Origin: a virus
IMG/VR virus record: IMGVR_UViG_3300021960_000046
Span: 22,740-86,739 of that record
Length of the DNA: 64,000 nt
Reading direction: 5' to 3' (one strand)
Of the stretch, positions 1,960 to 48,150 are shown piece by piece (position 1 is the first letter of the stretch; every line of letters begins with the position of its first letter). Position numbers and translations under genes: made by a program. A model generated the notes under the pieces. It was not told the origin of the DNA. It made no database searches and saw nothing but the letters and a program-made list of their open reading frames with translations.

Positions 1960-4446
1960 TCATCCGAAGAAAGCCTCCAGACTTGCCTGTGGTTCTGCTT
2001 TCCAACCAATTGCGTCTAAGATAAATCGCATAGGGTCTAAGAAAGTCTTATCAAACATAACATCATAGTCTATGTATTGTTGTAGATTAAACTCGGTTGG
2101 TAGTGTACTAATATAACTGATAACATCAAACTTAAACGGATTGGCTTCTTTGAGTTTTAGAAACTTAATCTTGTCGCCTTCTTGTATCATAGGATACTTG
2201 TTATGTAATTTGAAATTATCAATCTGATGATTATATATCAAAGCACCTTTCACATGAATTGGTGTACCTTTGATGAATATGTTACTACTACTGGTATACT
2301 TTTTAAGATTGTTACAACTTCTAGGAAAAGCAATTGCTTCTGCCGGTAGTTTGAAAAATTCTGTTCTAAAGTCTGCAATAAATTTATGTAGGTCTGTTTG
2401 TTCTTTACCCATAATAATTTTAATTGCTTCTTTAATCTTACCTCTACAAACTTGTGGTGTTGAAGACTTAACGGCTTCGATACCCATAAGTTTAAGTTTA
2501 GGTTCTGCAAGTCTAACACCTTCTTCATCAAGTACATTTAGCATGTATCTCTTCTTTGCAATCCAGATACCTTTGTTGGCAATTACTTCTCGTTTCATTA
2601 CCATGGCATTTTTAAATGCATTAGAATAATCTGCTAGTTCATCAAAACATTTTTCAATATATGGTTCAATCTTTTGTTCACAAACTTTATTTAAGAAGTC
2701 AACAATCTGGTCATTTGTTTTACCTTTGCATGTTACTTCAACTAATTTTTCTAATCGAACATAGATACTATCTGTATCAGACGCCACAATATAATCTTCG
2801 TTATCTGTATTCAATACTTTGTTTAAATAATCATTTACTTTTTTTTCAATGAAACGAATAATAAACTGACCAGCAGTTGTAATACCAGCAGCCTGTCTTA
2901 CATCATAATACCTGAAGTATTGATTACCAACTGCACCATAAGCTGAGTTCAATGCAATCTTTCTTGCCCATTGAATATTATGGCACCTTGCAATCTCTTT
3001 AACTAATTCTGGATTCTTAGTTCTTTGATATTGTTCTTTTGCCTTCAACATTCGTTTCTTATAAATCACTCGTTCTTTATACATGGTCTCCATCATTTCA
3101 GATAGAAACCCTTGGCTGTCTCTCATAAACAATGCACCGTTAGGTGTAATTGTTGCGTTCTTTTCTTTTAAGAAATCTAAATTAATTTCTCTATTCAACA
3201 TCTTCTCAACACCAACGGCTGAATGATGAGAACCAATCAGTTTTTCTGGTGAGATGTTGTATTGAATAAGAATATGTGGATAAAGAGAGTTGATATCAAA
3301 TGAAACCATCCACTTGTGTTGGCCTGGTATAGGGTCTTTTACATAAGCGCCTTCATACTTTTCATTCTTAATGTGGTCTTCTCTTGGTGGTATGCAAATA
3401 TTCTTCTTCATCAAATAGTTTGCAATCAAAGTATCCCACACTCGCACTTGTGAAAAGATATCATCATAGTTAACTTTGGATTCATATGCAACGGTCAATG
3501 CCAGTTCAATCAAACCTAGTTTGTCTTCTAGTTTGTCAACAATCTCCACATCTTGTATGTTGTAATCTACAAACCTTTGAAAGTCTTTCTCATAAAATTC
3601 TTTGAATGTGCCATAAGGGTTATCGTTCTTGTTTTCATCTAGTTCTATTTCACCAATGAAATCTAGTTTATAACTTTCTTGCCTTGTTGGAATAAACCAC
3701 TTATACAAGTCAAGGTAATCTAACATAACGGTACCAAACAAAGTATAAACTCTTTGTGGTCGACCTTGTACATGAATTACTGCATTGTCAATCAATCCCC
3801 AAGGTGACATCTTTTCAATGACCTTTTGACCTGCAACAAGTTTAATTCTTTCCATCAAATATGGTAAGTCAAAAAACTTGGTATTCCAGCCTGTGATAAT
3901 ATCAGGATGATTTTTCATCCAAAACTTCACAAACTCAAACATCAATTCTTTTTCACTCTTACATTTAATATAAGTTACATCTGTTCTATCTGTATGATAA
4001 TCGCCTACACCCCATGTAATGATGTGTTTGTTTGTTTGATTTTTTACCGTAATACATAACAACTCTTCAACTGGATTTTCTACATCTGGAAAACCATTTT
4101 CACAAGTAGTCTCAATGTCTAGTGTAAAAATTTTAATTAGTTTTTTATCCCATTCAATCTCTTGTGGGAATTCTTGGCCAATATACTGATAATGAAACCT
4201 CTCTAAACCATAGACAGGTGTATTCATCTCAGACCTCTCTTTACGATATCGTCTGGCATCCATAATATTATCAAATGTTATTGGTTGTAGATACTGACCT
4301 TGTAGGTTTTTGTAAGGAGATTTAGATGATGTTAGAGAATAGAAAGTTGGCATAAAGTCCAACTTCTCTTTGTATTCTTTACCGCCGTGTATACCACGGA
4401 CTAATAGTTTTCCTCTGTGTTCGATAACATTTTTATAAAAGTTCAT
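1960..4446 (-). CDS. 43: DNA polymerase, family B (T4 gp43)
   Basis: 828 residues against 898 in T4. 3'-5' exonuclease motifs: Exo I D110-I-E112 (FTLDIET), Exo II near 188-193 (NTKFFD), Exo III YNIQD at 295-299. Polymerase motif A DINSLYP at 384-390, motif B KIALNSAYGAVGN at 496-508, motif C DTDS at 557-560, and a KKRY segment further on. The C-terminus ASLEAFFG resembles the short tail by which T4-type polymerases bind the gp45 clamp. It replicates phage DNA with the clamp and clamp loader encoded upstream. The start overlaps the end of the ferredoxin gene by 14 nt with GAGGAACA as ribosome site, implying translational coupling. A consensus promoter inside the ferredoxin gene can also serve it. 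Confidence 0.98.
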   Translation of the reverse strand: MNFYKNVIEHRGKLLVRGIHGGKEYKEKLDFMPTFYSLTSSKSPYKNLQGQYLQPITFDNIMDARRYRKERSEMNTPVYGLERFHYQYIGQEFPQEIEWDKKLIKIFTLDIETTCENGFPDVENPVEELLCITVKNQTNKHIITWGVGDYHTDRTDVTYIKCKSEKELMFEFVKFWMKNHPDIITGWNTKFFDLPYLMERIKLVAGQKVIEKMSPWGLIDNAVIHVQGRPQRVYTLFGTVMLDYLDLYKWFIPTRQESYKLDFIGEIELDENKNDNPYGTFKEFYEKDFQRFVDYNIQDVEIVDKLEDKLGLIELALTVAYESKVNYDDIFSQVRVWDTLIANYLMKKNICIPPREDHIKNEKYEGAYVKDPIPGQHKWMVSFDINSLYPHILIQYNISPEKLIGSHHSAVGVEKMLNREINLDFLKEKNATITPNGALFMRDSQGFLSEMMETMYKERVIYKKRMLKAKEQYQRTKNPELVKEIARCHNIQWARKIALNSAYGAVGNQYFRYYDVRQAAGITTAGQFIIRFIEKKVNDYLNKVLNTDNEDYIVASDTDSIYVRLEKLVEVTCKGKTNDQIVDFLNKVCEQKIEPYIEKCFDELADYSNAFKNAMVMKREVIANKGIWIAKKRYMLNVLDEEGVRLAEPKLKLMGIEAVKSSTPQVCRGKIKEAIKIIMGKEQTDLHKFIADFRTEFFKLPAEAIAFPRSCNNLKKYTSSSNIFIKGTPIHVKGALIYNHQIDNFKLHNKYPMIQEGDKIKFLKLKEANPFKFDVISYISTLPTEFNLQQYIDYDVMFDKTFLDPMRFILDAIGWKAEPQASLEAFFG

Positions 4447-4771
4447 TGTTCCTCAAATATGCAATTAAGCCATCATGTTTAGGTTCTAGTTCGATTTGAC
4501 AGGACAACCTACTGAGTCCTGGTTTATAGTCTTTTTCGTATTCTAATAAGTCAATTTCAGGACTATTATAAGCCATTTCATCTAATTTGTCAAGCCACCT
4601 TTCATCAATATACACATGACAAGTACCACACGCACAACAACCACCACAGGTGGCTGGTATTTCTTCGATAGGAACAGGTGAATGAAACTTGGCAGCCTCC
4701 ATAAGAGTAGTACCTACAGGCACTTCAACTCTTATCTTGGAGCCGTCTCTGACAAAATATACCGTAACCAT
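4433..4771 (-). CDS. [2Fe-2S] ferredoxin, adrenodoxin/ISC type
   Basis: 112 residues. Cluster ligands are visible as C42-x5-C48-x2-C51 followed by C91 in LSCQI, the pattern of ISC-type/adrenodoxin-like ferredoxins; two extra Cys (45 and 46) lie inside the loop. An electron carrier: plausible clients in this genome are the bilin reductase and heme oxygenase (43.5-44.7 kb) or the radical-SAM proteins (62-64 kb), but it sits in the replication operon, overlapping gene 43 by 14 nt. Phage ferredoxins are known accessory metabolic genes in marine viruses. The client is an inference. Confidence 0.92.
   Translation of the reverse strand: MVTVYFVRDGSKIRVEVPVGTTLMEAAKFHSPVPIEEIPATCGGCCACGTCHVYIDERWLDKLDEMAYNSPEIDLLEYEKDYKPGLSRLSCQIELEPKHDGLIAYLRNNELL
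4565..4593 (-). promoter_or_regulatory. consensus sigma70 promoter inside the ferredoxin gene
   Basis: Minus strand: -35 TTGACA at 4593-4588, exactly 17 bp spacer, -10 TATAAT at 4570-4565, a perfect match to the bacterial housekeeping consensus. Transcription would start near 4558, giving about 110 nt of leader before gene 43. It overlaps codons for the WLDKLDEMAYN segment of the ferredoxin. It probably gives gene 43 its own early transcript. Confidence 0.65.
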
Positions 4772-42625: not shown

Positions 42626-43432
42626 TTATCCAATCATCATTGCCGGATTTAACTCAAATGTTGAACGAATTTCTCCCTCTAATTTTTCAATTTCAGCAAG
42701 TGATTGTGTGTAGATTTCAACACCATTAAGTGTCACACCACCAATCATTGCTACGCCTCCAAATTTAGATAAGTTGGAACCCCATTGTTTTTTAAATAAA
42801 GCAGTTACATATCTTTTTAGGTAAATGTCGTTATATACATCTGTATATACATCCGGGTCTAACTTTCTATATGCTTCAATTACTAGATATTCACCAACTT
42901 GTAAATCGTTCTTCCAATCCATGTCAATGTATAATCTATTATCGTGTTGATTAAATCGTAATGGTTTTTCACCTACTAAAATGTGGTCTAAGAAATCTAA
43001 ATGTCTTAAAACGATATCATAATTGATAACACTTGTTGATGAGAAATCATATAAATCATTTAATCTTAACTGATATCTAACATCAAATAAATTTAGGTTA
43101 CCTTTATCTGAAAACGGAAATATATTGATAACAGAAATAACACTTTCTGGAACGGTAATATAATTATTTTGTTCTAGCCATGTAGTTGAGACTGAATTCT
43201 TTGTAATTGTCTCACTAGTGTTACCTAAAATTCTTGCTTTATCGGCAGCTGTATATTGATATTTTAAATAAGTCCGTCTAATTGCGTCATAATGATACTG
43301 AGCAAAGTATTGTAGACCTTCATCAATTCTATCTTCCAGCTGGTCGTCATCAGCATTAATTTCGATAACAGGATGGCCTAACGCTCTTAAAGCGTATTGT
43401 TTTAATTGTTCTCTGCTTGATGGATTTGCCAT
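42626..43432 (-). CDS. 13: neck protein (T4 gp13)
   Basis: 268 residues (T4 309). LKQYALRALGHPVIEINADDDQLEDRIDEGLQYFAQYHYDA is the gp13 signature; MANPSSREQ at the start. It heads the late run 13-14-15-16, with a TATAAATA promoter 30 nt upstream that separates it from the redox island. Confidence 0.94.
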   Translation of the reverse strand: MANPSSREQLKQYALRALGHPVIEINADDDQLEDRIDEGLQYFAQYHYDAIRRTYLKYQYTAADKARILGNTSETITKNSVSTTWLEQNNYITVPESVISVINIFPFSDKGNLNLFDVRYQLRLNDLYDFSSTSVINYDIVLRHLDFLDHILVGEKPLRFNQHDNRLYIDMDWKNDLQVGEYLVIEAYRKLDPDVYTDVYNDIYLKRYVTALFKKQWGSNLSKFGGVAMIGGVTLNGVEIYTQSLAEIEKLEGEIRSTFELNPAMMIG

Positions 43433-43461
43433 TCTAATATCCTTTTGTACCTTCTACGGTA

Positions 43462-43469
43462 TATTTATA
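43462..43469 (-). promoter_or_regulatory. late promoter (TATAAATA) for genes 13-14-15-16-17
   Basis: Exact TATAAATA on the minus strand between the bilin reductase stop and gene 13. It lets the neck/terminase run be expressed late, independently of the island. Confidence 0.7.
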
Positions 43470-43473
43470 AGAT

Positions 43474-44160
43474 TTATTTTATCTTCGGAAAGAGATTATC
43501 TGAGCAGAATAACTTTATATCATCTTCAGGCAAACCAAGTGATTCCATTACTCTAGGAGTGTGTGGATTTTGCTGTTGGTTCTCACAATAGTAGTTTTGT
43601 GCTTCAATTACATCATTTTCCTCACTATCGCCATTATATGAACCTATCATATTTAGATAAGCAGAAAGGTTACCTATTGCAATATCACATATATTCTTTA
43701 ACTCAACAATATCTTGTACATTGCCAGCCGCTATCATACCACCGCTGAATATTCTCTTAGCCCAATCAGGCAATTCTCGTTCTTTACTAGGTTTAAAATC
43801 TTTAACTTCGTTAATAAACCACTTTGTTAATGGATGTTCTTTCTGTAATAAAGGAGAAAAATCATGGAATGCACCAGTAACTTTATTCTTACCTGCAATT
43901 ACATCAAAACCATAAATTGGTCCACCATTTGTTTTGTTTGGAAATAAACATACATGCATCATCCAAAGTTTCTTACTATCTCTTACATCAACAACATCAA
44001 CATGAGCTCTTCGTACATTATTATTTTTCCATGTTCTATTGACCCAGCCATATTCTGGATTGTTAAATCTTTCCATACCTGGTTCATCATACTCTTCACA
44101 ATGACGGTCTAATAAATCGACCATCTTGTCTTTACAATTAATTAAAGTTTCCCAAATCAT
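43474..44160 (-). CDS. pcyX: ferredoxin-dependent bilin reductase (PcyX-like)
   Basis: 228 residues, the size of viral bilin reductases. The N-terminal half carries WKNNNVRRAHVDVVDV, MMHVCLFP, YGFDVIAGKNKVTGAFHDFSP; the Asp of HDFSP (D100) corresponds to the catalytic Asp of the PcyA/PebS family. The C-terminus has PHTPRVMESLGL and SDNLFPK like other members. It reduces biliverdin, taking electrons from ferredoxin. PcyX-type enzymes next to heme oxygenase have been reported from uncultured marine phages thought to infect alphaproteobacteria and make phycoerythrobilin. It starts with AAGGAAATGC before ATG and overlaps the heme oxygenase gene by 23 nt. The exact bilin product is inferred. Confidence 0.9.
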   Translation of the reverse strand: MIWETLINCKDKMVDLLDRHCEEYDEPGMERFNNPEYGWVNRTWKNNNVRRAHVDVVDVRDSKKLWMMHVCLFPNKTNGGPIYGFDVIAGKNKVTGAFHDFSPLLQKEHPLTKWFINEVKDFKPSKERELPDWAKRIFSGGMIAAGNVQDIVELKNICDIAIGNLSAYLNMIGSYNGDSEENDVIEAQNYYCENQQQNPHTPRVMESLGLPEDDIKLFCSDNLFPKIK

Positions 44161-44722
44161 GCATTTCCTTCATTTCTTTAAACAACATTGTTGCACTTTC
44201 AAAACAATATCTAGCTTCTGCTAAAACATTAATTTGATAAATGTTCATGTACATATTAACTCGTTCTTTTACAATTCGTTTATACTCTATAACTTCAGTA
44301 TTTGTAAATCTATAATATCTATTAGGACCTGGAGTTTTCTTTCTAATCATTTGACCGCCAGATAAATCTCCTAAATGTCTTACATAGATATGTGCATATA
44401 ATTTTTCTGCACTTTCTGAGATAGACTTAATATGTTCTATATATTTGTTTGTACTTTCGGTTAACGGTGGTTTACCATTTTCATGGTTCCATAAAGCATT
44501 GTAATCGTAATGTAATGCTTCACTTCTAGGTAGTGAATTTAAATCTTTAAATAGCGATAGTTGTTGTGCGTGTTTTTCTAATTCAGAATAACAAGCTAAC
44601 TGGTTGTACAAATAACAAGCATATAATTGTTTGTTAATATTACCAGACATTAATATTCTCACAAAGTCCTGGCGTTCAGCGTCTTTGTGGTGTTCCATTG
44701 TCAATTCTTTTATATCATACAT
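44138..44722 (-). CDS. ho1: heme oxygenase (HO-1 type)
   Basis: 194 residues. Proximal His in LTMEHHKDAERQ (H11/H12), a YACYLYNQLACYSELE helix, and the distal-helix signature YVRHLGDLSGGQM (GDLSGGQ at 118-124). It opens heme to biliverdin, releasing CO and Fe(II). Together with the downstream reductase it forms a two-step heme-to-bilin route. It overlaps the upstream oxygenase by 8 nt. Confidence 0.97.
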   Translation of the reverse strand: MYDIKELTMEHHKDAERQDFVRILMSGNINKQLYACYLYNQLACYSELEKHAQQLSLFKDLNSLPRSEALHYDYNALWNHENGKPPLTESTNKYIEHIKSISESAEKLYAHIYVRHLGDLSGGQMIRKKTPGPNRYYRFTNTEVIEYKRIVKERVNMYMNIYQINVLAEARYCFESATMLFKEMKEMHDLGNFN

Positions 44723-45326
44723 ATATTTTATAGTCCATTGCTATAGAAATTCTATCATCATCACTTTGATTTTGTTCCACCTCATGTTTAATGTGAGCTG
44801 GAAAAATGATAAATCTTCCTGGTTTAGGTTTGTAAAAATATCCAAAACTATTTAGATTGTTAGAATTGCTTTGTTTTAAATACAAATCATTAAACTCCAT
44901 TCTAACATCTGGTGATTTTAATACTAAGTTACCAAGTTCTTTATTTTCATCACCTTTTATAAAGAATACTACTGAAAAATTTGATGTGACATGTGAATGT
45001 TCTGGTGCATAATCTCCAGGTTTGTTTACATTAATCCACGCAGCTGTTAAATCTACTTTTCTAGGTGTCTTTATGTTTAATACATCAGCAAAGCCATTTA
45101 CATGAGGTTGTATAAAGTCTGTAAATTTTTTTAATATAGTTTCTTTACTTAACTCTTCATTGAATTTAGACTTAGTATTATTAATAAATTCAACTTGGTG
45201 TCCTGAAACATTACCCTTATGACCTAAATGTTTATATGCCAATTTTTCAATAGCACTAATCATATCAACATCTTCACATTGTCCTATTGCTATTGGTGTT
45301 ACAAATGCTGGTACAATATCAATCAT
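44715..45326 (-). CDS. 2OG-Fe(II) oxygenase-like protein (PF13759-like), no. 8
   Basis: 203 residues from the ATG that overlaps the upstream stop as ATGATTGA; a longer in-frame extension lies within the neighbour and has no ribosome site. AAWINVNKPGDYAPEHSH (H110-x-H112), FSVVFFIKGD, then GRFIIFPAHIKHEV (H181) and DRISIAMDY (R192). Coupled on both sides inside the redox island. Confidence 0.86.
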   Translation of the reverse strand: MIDIVPAFVTPIAIGQCEDVDMISAIEKLAYKHLGHKGNVSGHQVEFINNTKSKFNEELSKETILKKFTDFIQPHVNGFADVLNIKTPRKVDLTAAWINVNKPGDYAPEHSHVTSNFSVVFFIKGDENKELGNLVLKSPDVRMEFNDLYLKQSNSNNLNSFGYFYKPKPGRFIIFPAHIKHEVEQNQSDDDRISIAMDYKIYV

Positions 45327-45999
45327 CAAACGAATACCATCCGGTTGCAATATATTTTTCATGTTTCTCTGATATAACACCTCTGTGTATGTGTGTCCAA
45401 TCAGTAGGCCAAAATACGGTTAATCCTTTTTCTGCCTGTAAAGTTACATTCTGATATTTCCAATGTGTGCCACCGTCTGGTACATCATTTAAATAAGTCA
45501 TAAAAACTAAAAATCTTTTAGCAGATTCCACACAATCTCTTTCAAAGTGATTAACTTTATAACCACCTCCTGGAGGATAGTATTGTAAATTAGTTGTCAT
45601 ACCTCTAAGTGACCAAGGTGTGGTCATATTAGTTTCTGGATACAAAGGGAAGAAGTTTTTTAAAGCAGCTTGTAGTTCTCTATGATAAGCAACAATCCTT
45701 TTATCTTGGTTATCAATTGTAAATCCACATTCAATACTATCTTTTCTTTCTTTGTTTACTTGTCGTTGACCAAAAGCACCTGGTTCTTTCTCAGGATTTT
45801 CTTTATACCATTCGATAAGTCCATCACAAATACTATTGTCATTCATATAAAAACCAGCAATAAACTTTTCTGGTTGTGAATTTATTTCATGTGGTCGTCT
45901 TTTATTCTCATCACTTAAAGTAACATGTGTAAATTTGTTATCATCACTTAAATGAGGAAATTTCCTACCATACATTTCTGTGCCATCATTTATAGTCAT
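45319..45999 (-). CDS. prolyl-4-hydroxylase-like 2OG-Fe(II) oxygenase, no. 9
   Basis: 226 residues from the ATG preceded by GAAGGTAAAG. Double-stranded beta-helix core: YYPPGGGYKVNHFERD with H151-x-E153 (HxE in place of the usual HxD), FMTYLNDVPDGGTHW, then FWPTDWTHIHRGV (distal H203) and KYIATGWYSF (K215 for 2-oxoglutarate, as in P4H). Different subgroup from the other oxygenases. HxE is less usual in hydroxylases. It overlaps the halogenase by 14 nt. Confidence 0.85.
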   Translation of the reverse strand: MTINDGTEMYGRKFPHLSDDNKFTHVTLSDENKRRPHEINSQPEKFIAGFYMNDNSICDGLIEWYKENPEKEPGAFGQRQVNKERKDSIECGFTIDNQDKRIVAYHRELQAALKNFFPLYPETNMTTPWSLRGMTTNLQYYPPGGGYKVNHFERDCVESAKRFLVFMTYLNDVPDGGTHWKYQNVTLQAEKGLTVFWPTDWTHIHRGVISEKHEKYIATGWYSFDD

Positions 46000-47581
46000 C
46001 TTTACCTTCAAAGAATTCATCTCGTAAAAACTCATAAGTTGATTTGAGTTTAGAAGCTTGTTCTTCCCAATCCCTTCTTCTACTATCTAATCTAGTTGTT
46101 ACTTCGTCCCAAGAATTATGATAATGCCTTTTATCAGAATTACAATTTTCTTGTGCAATTCTATGAAAGTCATGTACAAACCATCTCATACCTGGAGCAA
46201 TACATTGTAATCCCTCTGATAGTTCCCAACGACCATCTCTTTTTCTTCTAAAGGAATCTTCAAAAGCATTTCCCTTTTTAACAGGCCATTTTTGAGACCA
46301 TTGTCTTCTTTGAACATCTTGCCAATATGGCGTATCTTCTCTATTTGATAATGAGTAATGCATAGCCACGAAAGCCGCAAAACCATCAAACATTTTACTA
46401 GTTAAGAAGTTATATTCTTCTCTATCATACTCTGTGTATTTGTCTCTTTCACCACCAATTTTAGCCACTAAATGTCTTAAAAATTCATGTACTGAATATA
46501 GTCCATTACTTTCTAGTGGTTCAATAAAACCAGCAGATAAACCAATAGCGACAACATTATTGACCCACATTCTTTCGTGTCGACCAACTCTCATTTTAAT
46601 TTTCTTAAATTCTAATTCTTCTACAGGTACACCACTATAGTTTTTATCTTTAATGAATTGTTTAAACTCTTCTAAAGCATTTTCATCACTAATATATTTG
46701 TCTGAATAAACATAACCTGTACCCCAACGAGTCCATAAAGGAATTTTCCATACCCAACCATTATTATGTGCAATACAATCGGTGTATAGATTAATTTCTT
46801 TTTCTTTATCTTTATAAGGCAGTCTTGTTGCCCAAGCTGAGTTGTTTGGCAATACATCAGCAAAGTCAATAAACTTTTCACCTAATGCTTTGCCTAGTAA
46901 TAATGATTTGAAACCTGTACAATCAATCCATAAGTCAGCTTCATACTTGTCTCCGTTTTCTAATACAACGGATTCTACATTATTGTTTTCATCTGTGATT
47001 ACATCTGTAACATCACCTAATACATGTTGTACACCTTCGGGAATACAAACCTCATCTTTTAAGAATAAACCAAACTTAGTTGCGTCAAAATGATACGCTT
47101 TATCTTTATTATAATTAAAATTAGGAAAGTTTTCTCCTAATGTGTTTTTATTAACCATAGCCATTTGAGAATAGTTTGTATCTGCAAAATCAGTTACAGG
47201 AGTATCAGGTAAAAAACATTTTTTATAATACCAATCATTTGTGCCATCTCTGTTACCAAATGTCACAGGTAATCCAAAAGGATAATGAAACCCACCATCA
47301 TTGACATCATAGAAATTTTCAAAACGAATACTTAGTTTAATTGTTCCGTCTGTGTGCTTTACAAATCTTTTAGGATCATTCAATCCAATTAATTCTAACC
47401 AATTAGAAATACCACCAATTGTACTTTCACCAACACCTACGGTTGATATATTAGGACTTTCAATTAGTGTAATCTTGGTGCCTGGTTTACAGGTTCTAAT
47501 CAGAGTAGCCGCTGTCATCCAGCCTGCACTTCCGCCACCTACGATTTTAATGTCATTGTATTTGTTGTATAGTTTACTCAT
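45986..47581 (-). CDS. prnA-like: FADH2-dependent tryptophan-halogenase-like enzyme
   Basis: 531 residues. FAD-binding VGGGSAGW (14-21), ESTIG, catalytic Lys in TIKLSIRFENF (K82), the family signature GWVWKIP at 275-281 and FIEPLESNG near 355. These enzymes form HOCl at the flavin and a Lys chloramine that halogenates Trp or other indoles/pyrroles. Such genes are known in marine T4-like phages; their substrates are unproven. No flavin reductase is seen in the window. The gene overlaps the upstream oxygenase by 4 nt (ATGA) and has GAGGAAAAA as ribosome site. Confidence 0.94.
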   Translation of the reverse strand: MSKLYNKYNDIKIVGGGSAGWMTAATLIRTCKPGTKITLIESPNISTVGVGESTIGGISNWLELIGLNDPKRFVKHTDGTIKLSIRFENFYDVNDGGFHYPFGLPVTFGNRDGTNDWYYKKCFLPDTPVTDFADTNYSQMAMVNKNTLGENFPNFNYNKDKAYHFDATKFGLFLKDEVCIPEGVQHVLGDVTDVITDENNNVESVVLENGDKYEADLWIDCTGFKSLLLGKALGEKFIDFADVLPNNSAWATRLPYKDKEKEINLYTDCIAHNNGWVWKIPLWTRWGTGYVYSDKYISDENALEEFKQFIKDKNYSGVPVEELEFKKIKMRVGRHERMWVNNVVAIGLSAGFIEPLESNGLYSVHEFLRHLVAKIGGERDKYTEYDREEYNFLTSKMFDGFAAFVAMHYSLSNREDTPYWQDVQRRQWSQKWPVKKGNAFEDSFRRKRDGRWELSEGLQCIAPGMRWFVHDFHRIAQENCNSDKRHYHNSWDEVTTRLDSRRRDWEEQASKLKSTYEFLRDEFFEGKDDYK

Positions 47582-48150
47582 TTTTTCCTCATATAGTTTA
47601 TATTCATAATTACTCTACGGTCTTTATCAGTTTGAGTAAAAGCCGAGTGTACTAAATTGCCATCAAATAGAATTAATCTATTTTCTTTTGTTTCGAATTC
47701 TTTATCGCCAATAATACTAGCACCATTGTCACTAGTAAAACATAGTATGCCTGTTATATATTCAAAATTATTATTGGTTGTTTCGTAAAAATCTGTATGT
47801 TTAGCTAGATATTTTACTTTGTTTTGATTTGTGTACAGATTTAACTTCCACTTCAAAGGTTCACCAATAGGAACATTATGTTCATGTAAGGCGTCTGTTA
47901 TAGGGAAAAAGTTTCTGTACATATCACTAGTAGGACCTTTAGGTGTAAGAAGAACATTATGTAACATAAATGTTCCTACATCTTTAGTATCTACTTTTGT
48001 GATTGTGGGGTCTTGTGGGTTATAATCAAAGTCGGACCAATGCCAAGGAAAATCAATCCCTAAGACAAAGTTTTGTAACCTGTTAAATGTGTGTTTTGGA
48101 AGGAAGTCATCAATACACTTCACAAATCCATTATCAAAATTATCAATCAT
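47578..48150 (-). CDS. 2OG-Fe(II) oxygenase-like protein (HxD type), no. 10
   Basis: 190 residues. FPWHWSD near residue 34, KHTDF (H118-x-D120), ITGILCFTSDNGASI, distal LVHSAF (H168) and RRVIMNINY (R178/R179). First gene of the redox island; the ATG at 48150 has GGATAAATAATATT upstream, which may serve as ribosome site. Confidence 0.85.
   Translation of the reverse strand: MIDNFDNGFVKCIDDFLPKHTFNRLQNFVLGIDFPWHWSDFDYNPQDPTITKVDTKDVGTFMLHNVLLTPKGPTSDMYRNFFPITDALHEHNVPIGEPLKWKLNLYTNQNKVKYLAKHTDFYETTNNNFEYITGILCFTSDNGASIIGDKEFETKENRLILFDGNLVHSAFTQTDKDRRVIMNINYMRKK

What the first reader, a model, noticed from the sequence alone, without database searches (positions are those of the whole stretch)
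43474..44722. Heme oxygenase and PcyX-like bilin reductase in a phage with no visible photosynthesis genes
Heme oxygenase (GDLSGGQ signature) and a bilin reductase (HDFSP catalytic Asp) overlap by 23 nt and form a heme-to-bilin route. PcyX/HO pairs are known from uncultured marine phage metagenomes; here the pair sits in a defined T4-like context next to gene 13, and the same genome has its own ferredoxin. Why a phage of a likely non-phycobilisome host makes a bilin is unresolved: a pigment for host sensory proteins, iron release from heme, or redox protection are alternatives.
Basis: partly seen in the sequence, partly recalled or inferred. Interest (0 to 1): 0.75.

Follow-up and report, generated by a model that had tools for sequence, protein, structure and literature searches.

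The report
Bilin-making gene pair in SAR11 phage
A virus related to known viruses of SAR11, very common ocean bacteria, carries two overlapping genes that together should turn heme into a pink light-absorbing pigment; the same gene pair at the same place is already known from a cultured SAR11 virus, and what the virus uses the pigment for is still unknown.

Summary
On the minus strand, 44138-44722 is a heme oxygenase and 43474-44160 a PcyX-type ferredoxin-dependent bilin reductase; they overlap by 23 nt and lie next to gene 13. The case is not new. The contig is a close relative of Pelagibacter phage Mosig EXVC030M, isolated on SAR11 strain HTCC1062 (terminase 90%, capsid 89%, gp13 85% identical). 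Mosig has the same pair at the same place (73% and 64% identical) and the same type of ferredoxin. The reductase falls in a 98/100-supported clade with Mosig PcyX and crystallised PcyX (5OWG). Wegner et al. 2024 described hemO-pcyX cassettes in pelagimyophages and posed the same question of purpose. I correct two details: the catalytic Asp is D86 (YGFD), not that of HDFSP; the phage ferredoxin is adrenodoxin-type. New quantitative points: 24 of 33 related contigs with readable sequence upstream of gp13 carry PcyX there; both genes are under purifying selection; D55, H69 and D86 are invariant in 77 of 77 PcyX sequences. Some relatives add heme-synthesis genes beside the pair, which favours the bilin over iron release as the selected product. 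Its use in a SAR11-type host remains unresolved.

The parts
43474..44160 (-). PcyX-type ferredoxin-dependent bilin reductase (predicted phycoerythrobilin synthase), 228 aa
   Evidence: PF05996; 5OWG E 2.7e-112; 72.7% to Mosig_00053; tree 98/100; AF2 model pLDDT 93.9 with Foldseek best hit 5OWG; D55/H69/D86 invariant
44138..44722 (-). Heme oxygenase, 194 aa
   Evidence: PF01126; 63.9% to Mosig_00054; AF2 pLDDT 93.8, Foldseek hits are heme oxygenases HO-1, HO-2 and HmuO; H12 in 61/65 sequences
44138..44160 (-). 23-nt overlap of the HO end and the PcyX start
   Evidence: sequence; the same 23 nt in most near relatives, 14 nt in Mosig
42626..43432 (-). gp13-like neck protein (head-tail adaptor)
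   Evidence: PHROG 211; 84.7% to Mosig, 62.7% to HTVC008M
43462..43469 (-). TATAAATA, T4-type late-promoter-like box between PcyX and gp13
   Evidence: the same box in Mosig
44715..45380 (-). 2OG-Fe(II) oxygenase overlapping HO by 8 nt (same gene cluster)
   Evidence: PF13759
45319..46035 (-). 2OG-Fe(II) oxygenase
   Evidence: PF13640 / phrog_61
45986..47581 (-). Tryptophan-halogenase-like flavoprotein
   Evidence: PF04820 E 2.2e-105; phrog_2928
47578..48150 (-). 2OG oxygenase-like protein (phrog_274)
4433..4771 (-). [2Fe-2S] ferredoxin, adrenodoxin/putidaredoxin type (C-X5-C-X2-C-X39-C), possible electron donor
   Evidence: Fer2 E 2.7e-9; best PDB hit ferredoxin VI; Cys spacing

Best explanation
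It is the known pelagimyophage hemO-pcyX auxiliary metabolic cassette. The phage heme oxygenase opens heme to biliverdin IXalpha, releasing Fe(II) and CO. PcyX then reduces biliverdin by four electrons, through 15,16-dihydrobiliverdin, to phycoerythrobilin. Shown by sequence and model: the two enzymes, their intact active-site residues, their coupling, their conservation and the phage lineage. Inferred: the activities, from close homologues; a SAR11-type host, from about 85-90% identity of core proteins to an HTCC1062 phage; and that the bilin, not iron, is the selected product (about 0.55).
For: The reductase is full-length homologous to PcyX_EBK42635 and lies in its clade, apart from PcyA and PebS. 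D55, the PcyX-specific residue (PMC11480375) that replaces PcyA E76, plus H53, H69 and D86 are present, and invariant in 77/77. AF2 models match 5OWG and known heme oxygenases. Median pairwise dN/dS is about 0.13 (PcyX) and 0.24 (HO). The arrangement is the same in Mosig. 24 of 33 related contigs carry PcyX upstream of gp13. Heme-synthesis genes sit beside HO-PcyX in relatives: HemE and HemC in L057, AlaS-like in L059. PcyX stays intact where HO has lost its proximal His in L037, L039 and L050.
Against: No enzyme assay. No known bilin-binding protein was found in this record (PF00502 absent), but the record is a fragment. L265 has HO next to gp13 without PcyX. HTVC008M and Melnitz lack the reductase. 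The phage ferredoxin is not plant-type. The HemE/HemC and AlaS argument comes from other phages, not from this genome (no aminotransferase-fold AlaS here).
Confidence: 0.88

Rival explanations
1. Iron supply: the gain is the Fe(II) released by heme oxygenase from host heme for the phage's many Fe-dependent enzymes; PcyX only clears biliverdin.
For: Several 2OG-Fe(II) oxygenases in the same cluster and elsewhere in the contig; iron role discussed in PMC11480375; HO without PcyX in L265.
Against: Some relatives encode heme-synthesis steps beside HO-PcyX, which would consume rather than release iron; PcyX is more conserved than HO; PcyX intact with HO lacking its proximal His in L037, L039 and L050.
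Confidence: 0.2
2. Redox or light protection: heme degradation and bilins act as antioxidants or as an electron sink in the infected cell.
For: General knowledge of heme oxygenase and bilins; other redox genes in Mosig such as peroxiredoxin and rubrerythrin.
Against: No specific evidence; a phycoerythrobilin-specific enzyme is not needed, since biliverdin is itself an antioxidant.
Confidence: 0.15
3. Cyanophage cassette for phycobilisome repair, i.e. a cyanobacterial host.
For: PcyA and PebS are thought to play this part in cyanophages; PcyX supplies phycobilisomes when put in Synechococcus (PMC13197396).
Against: Core genes are nearest to a SAR11 phage; no Photo_RC or phycobilisome families; tree placement outside cyanophage PcyA and PebS.
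Confidence: 0.03

Closest known systems
hemO-pcyX of Pelagibacter phage Mosig EXVC030M (MT647606)
   Same: Same two overlapping genes, strand, gp13 neighbour, upstream 2OG oxygenases, and adrenodoxin-type ferredoxin beside DNA polymerase
   Different: 73% and 64% identity; overlap 14 nt instead of 23; no tryptophan halogenase at this place in Mosig
PcyX_EBK42635 (PDB 5OWG)
   Same: Full-length match, same D55/H69/D86 set
   Different: Sequence divergence only; EBK42635 is a metagenome sequence
PcyA (cyanobacteria, cyanophages; CB_2 phage PcyA)
   Same: Fold, H69 (PcyA H88), D86 (PcyA D105)
   Different: PcyA has Glu at the D55 position; separate clade
PebS of cyanophage P-SSM2
   Same: Predicted product phycoerythrobilin from one enzyme
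   Different: Different clade; Val at the D55 position and Asn at H69

Membership tests
PcyX (phage phycoerythrobilin synthase) | Falls in the PcyX clade, apart from PcyA and PebS | tested here: met
   Maximum-likelihood tree, PcyX group 97/89, subclade with Mosig and 5OWG 98/100
PcyX (phage phycoerythrobilin synthase) | PcyX-specific Asp55 in place of PcyA Glu76 | tested here: met
   D55, 77/77
PcyX (phage phycoerythrobilin synthase) | Catalytic His and Asp (PcyA H88, D105) | tested here: met
   H69 and D86
PcyX (phage phycoerythrobilin synthase) | Two-gene cassette with hemO | tested here: met
   23-nt overlap
PcyX (phage phycoerythrobilin synthase) | Turns biliverdin into phycoerythrobilin | not testable with these tools
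   needs an enzyme assay
Heme oxygenase (HO-1/HmuO type) | All-helical HO fold, proximal His, distal-helix Gly motif | tested here: met
   AF2 and Foldseek; H12, GDLSGGQ
Pelagimyophage (SAR11 myovirus) | Core genes nearest to HTCC1062 myophages | tested here: met
   66/110 ORFs match Mosig; TerL 90%, MCP 89%, gp13 85%
Pelagimyophage (SAR11 myovirus) | Infects SAR11 | not testable with these tools
   inferred from relatedness

The most novel reading that the evidence does not exclude
The phage makes phycoerythrobilin in a SAR11-type cell as a chromophore or ligand for a still unknown bilin-binding protein of phage or host, with the adrenodoxin-type phage ferredoxin as a dedicated electron donor, so that a heterotroph is given a bilin-dependent function during infection.
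Probability: 0.2. Interest if true: 0.65.

Novelty: new member of a known kind. Interest (0 to 1): 0.25.

Why it matters
It confirms, with many more contigs, that heme-to-bilin enzymes are a usual trait of one lineage of SAR11-type phages rather than a curiosity, and it points to the isolate Mosig on HTCC1062 as a system in which the open question of what a heterotroph's phage does with a bilin can be tested directly.

Tried and rejected
A cyanobacterial host was rejected (core genes, no photosynthesis families). A bacterial home of PcyX: the genome-collection hits lie on phage-like contigs in MAGs (L095-L098), and the Nonlabens hit is a cyanophage-type PcyA on a phage-like contig. Among 385 alphaproteobacterial genomes only three matched PF05996: one is a MAG carrying such a phage contig, one has two distant paralogues, and one is below the cut-off. 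I looked for a photoreceptor in the large ORFs upstream of HO in relatives (745-754 aa); read by eye they look like tail proteins. I could not name a SAR11 genome set, so SAR11 bilin acceptors were not searched for; the small order searched (32 genomes, identity unknown) had HO only on the phage contig. The 'ferrochelatase' label in Mosig has no Pfam support and was not used. The TATAAATA count is not above chance over the window, but all 11 are on the coding strand and 9 are intergenic, where only 3.9% of the window is.

Full report
OBSERVATION. The two ORFs exist as described: heme oxygenase 44138-44722 and bilin reductase 43474-44160, minus strand, 23-nt overlap, with strong family matches. 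The heme oxygenase start also overlaps an upstream 2OG-Fe(II) oxygenase by 8 nt, and the chain of overlapping genes runs back through a second 2OG oxygenase and a tryptophan-halogenase-like gene to 48150. A 41-nt gap with a TATAAATA box separates PcyX from gp13; Mosig has the same box. Of the 11 copies of this box in the window all are on the coding strand and 9 are intergenic, although only 3.9% of the window is intergenic. This suggests that gp13 has its own late promoter and that HO-PcyX are read from further upstream. That is an inference.

IDENTITY OF THE REDUCTASE. It matches the crystallised PcyX_EBK42635 (5OWG) over its whole length, E 2.7e-112, and Mosig's reductase at 72.7%. In a maximum-likelihood tree with PcyA and PebS it falls in PcyX, in a 98/100-supported clade with Mosig and 5OWG. 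The alignment shows H53, D55, H69 and D86 at the places of PcyA H74, E76, H88 and D105; they are invariant in 77/77 PcyX sequences. D55 is the residue that Wegner et al. (PMC11480375) name as PcyX-specific.

IDENTITY OF THE HEME OXYGENASE. The AlphaFold2 model (pLDDT 93.8) matches HO-2, HO-1 and HmuO. H12 stands at the place of the proximal His and is kept in 61 of 65 sequences. In L037, L039 and L050 the His is replaced while PcyX stays intact; L265 has the reverse, HO with no PcyX.

PHAGE AND HOST. The window is part of an 86,739-base virus record. 66 of 110 ORFs match the SAR11 (HTCC1062) phage Mosig EXVC030M: TerL 90%, MCP 89%, gp13 85%. Next for gp13 are HTVC008M (SAR11) and Melnitz (OM43), then cyanophages. 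A SAR11-type host is therefore likely but inferred. Photo_RC, phycobilisome and AlaS-fold families are absent from the record, which is a fragment.

DISTRIBUTION. 109 viral stretches encode relatives of this PcyX (80 kept). Among contigs with TerL at least 81% identical and readable sequence upstream of gp13, 24 of 33 have PcyX there, 19 of them directly adjacent; some of the other nine are cut short. HTVC008M and Melnitz lack any bilin reductase and carry 2OG oxygenases or tail-fiber genes at that place. So the site is variable, but in this lineage the pair is usual. Median pairwise dN/dS is about 0.13 for PcyX and 0.24 for HO; synonymous sites are near saturation, so these are rough.

FERREDOXIN. 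4433-4771 is a [2Fe-2S] ferredoxin of the adrenodoxin/putidaredoxin type (C-X5-C-X2-C spacing). It is present in Mosig and absent from HTVC008M and Melnitz, which also lack the reductase, but not found either in six other HO-PcyX records, all fragments. It may be the donor; this is open. P-SSM2, the PebS phage, has a different Fer2 protein, found by the family model and not by this ferredoxin.

WHAT IT IS FOR. Relatives place heme-synthesis genes beside HO-PcyX: URO-D (HemE) and PBG deaminase (HemC) in L057, an AlaS-like gene in L059-L061. AlaS cassettes are published (PMC11480375), and PBG deaminase and coproporphyrinogen oxidase genes in a deep pelagimyophage group are mentioned in PMC7029224. 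I found no paper in the held library on phage URO-D beside HO-PcyX (one query). Making more heme only to release its iron would be futile, so I favour the bilin as the product. This argument is by analogy from other phages and does not prove it here.

VERDICT. Real, correctly read in its main points, and already known as a kind, down to a cultured relative with the same arrangement. The open question is the published one.

Noticed in passing
L057:9346-12478 (IMGVR_UViG_3300010883_007299): HO - PcyX - HemE (URO-D, PF01208 E 2.5e-57) - HemC (PBG deaminase, E 1.3e-61) in a row in a T4-like contig; a second PcyX record (IMGVR_UViG_3300020446_001892, 42908-43861) also has a URO-D gene.
   Followed up: partly
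L059:8948-11876 (also L060, L061, L076): HO - 97-aa ORF - PcyX - AlaS-like aminotransferase-fold gene.
   Followed up: partly
L038:8648-10687 and several of L042-L056, L095-L098: Hsp20 and ClpS adaptor genes directly upstream of HO-PcyX, with curli-like CsgF/CsgG genes (by eye) nearby: a second pelagimyophage-like context.
   Followed up: partly
L037, L039, L050: Heme oxygenase has lost the proximal His (and part of the Gly motif) while PcyX is intact.
   Followed up: no
L099 (NZ_RMVE01000006, Nonlabens xiamenensis): Cyanophage-type PcyA on a 188-kb phage-like contig within a bacterial assembly, very close to that of P-TIM40 in the tree; looks like contamination.
   Followed up: partly
window 45986-47581: Tryptophan-halogenase-like gene inside a chain of overlapping 2OG-Fe(II) oxygenase genes; HTVC008M has a halogenase beside TerL instead.
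   Followed up: no
window, 11 TATAAATA boxes: T4-type late-promoter-like boxes, all on the coding strand, 9 of 11 intergenic (3.9% of the window is intergenic).
   Followed up: partly
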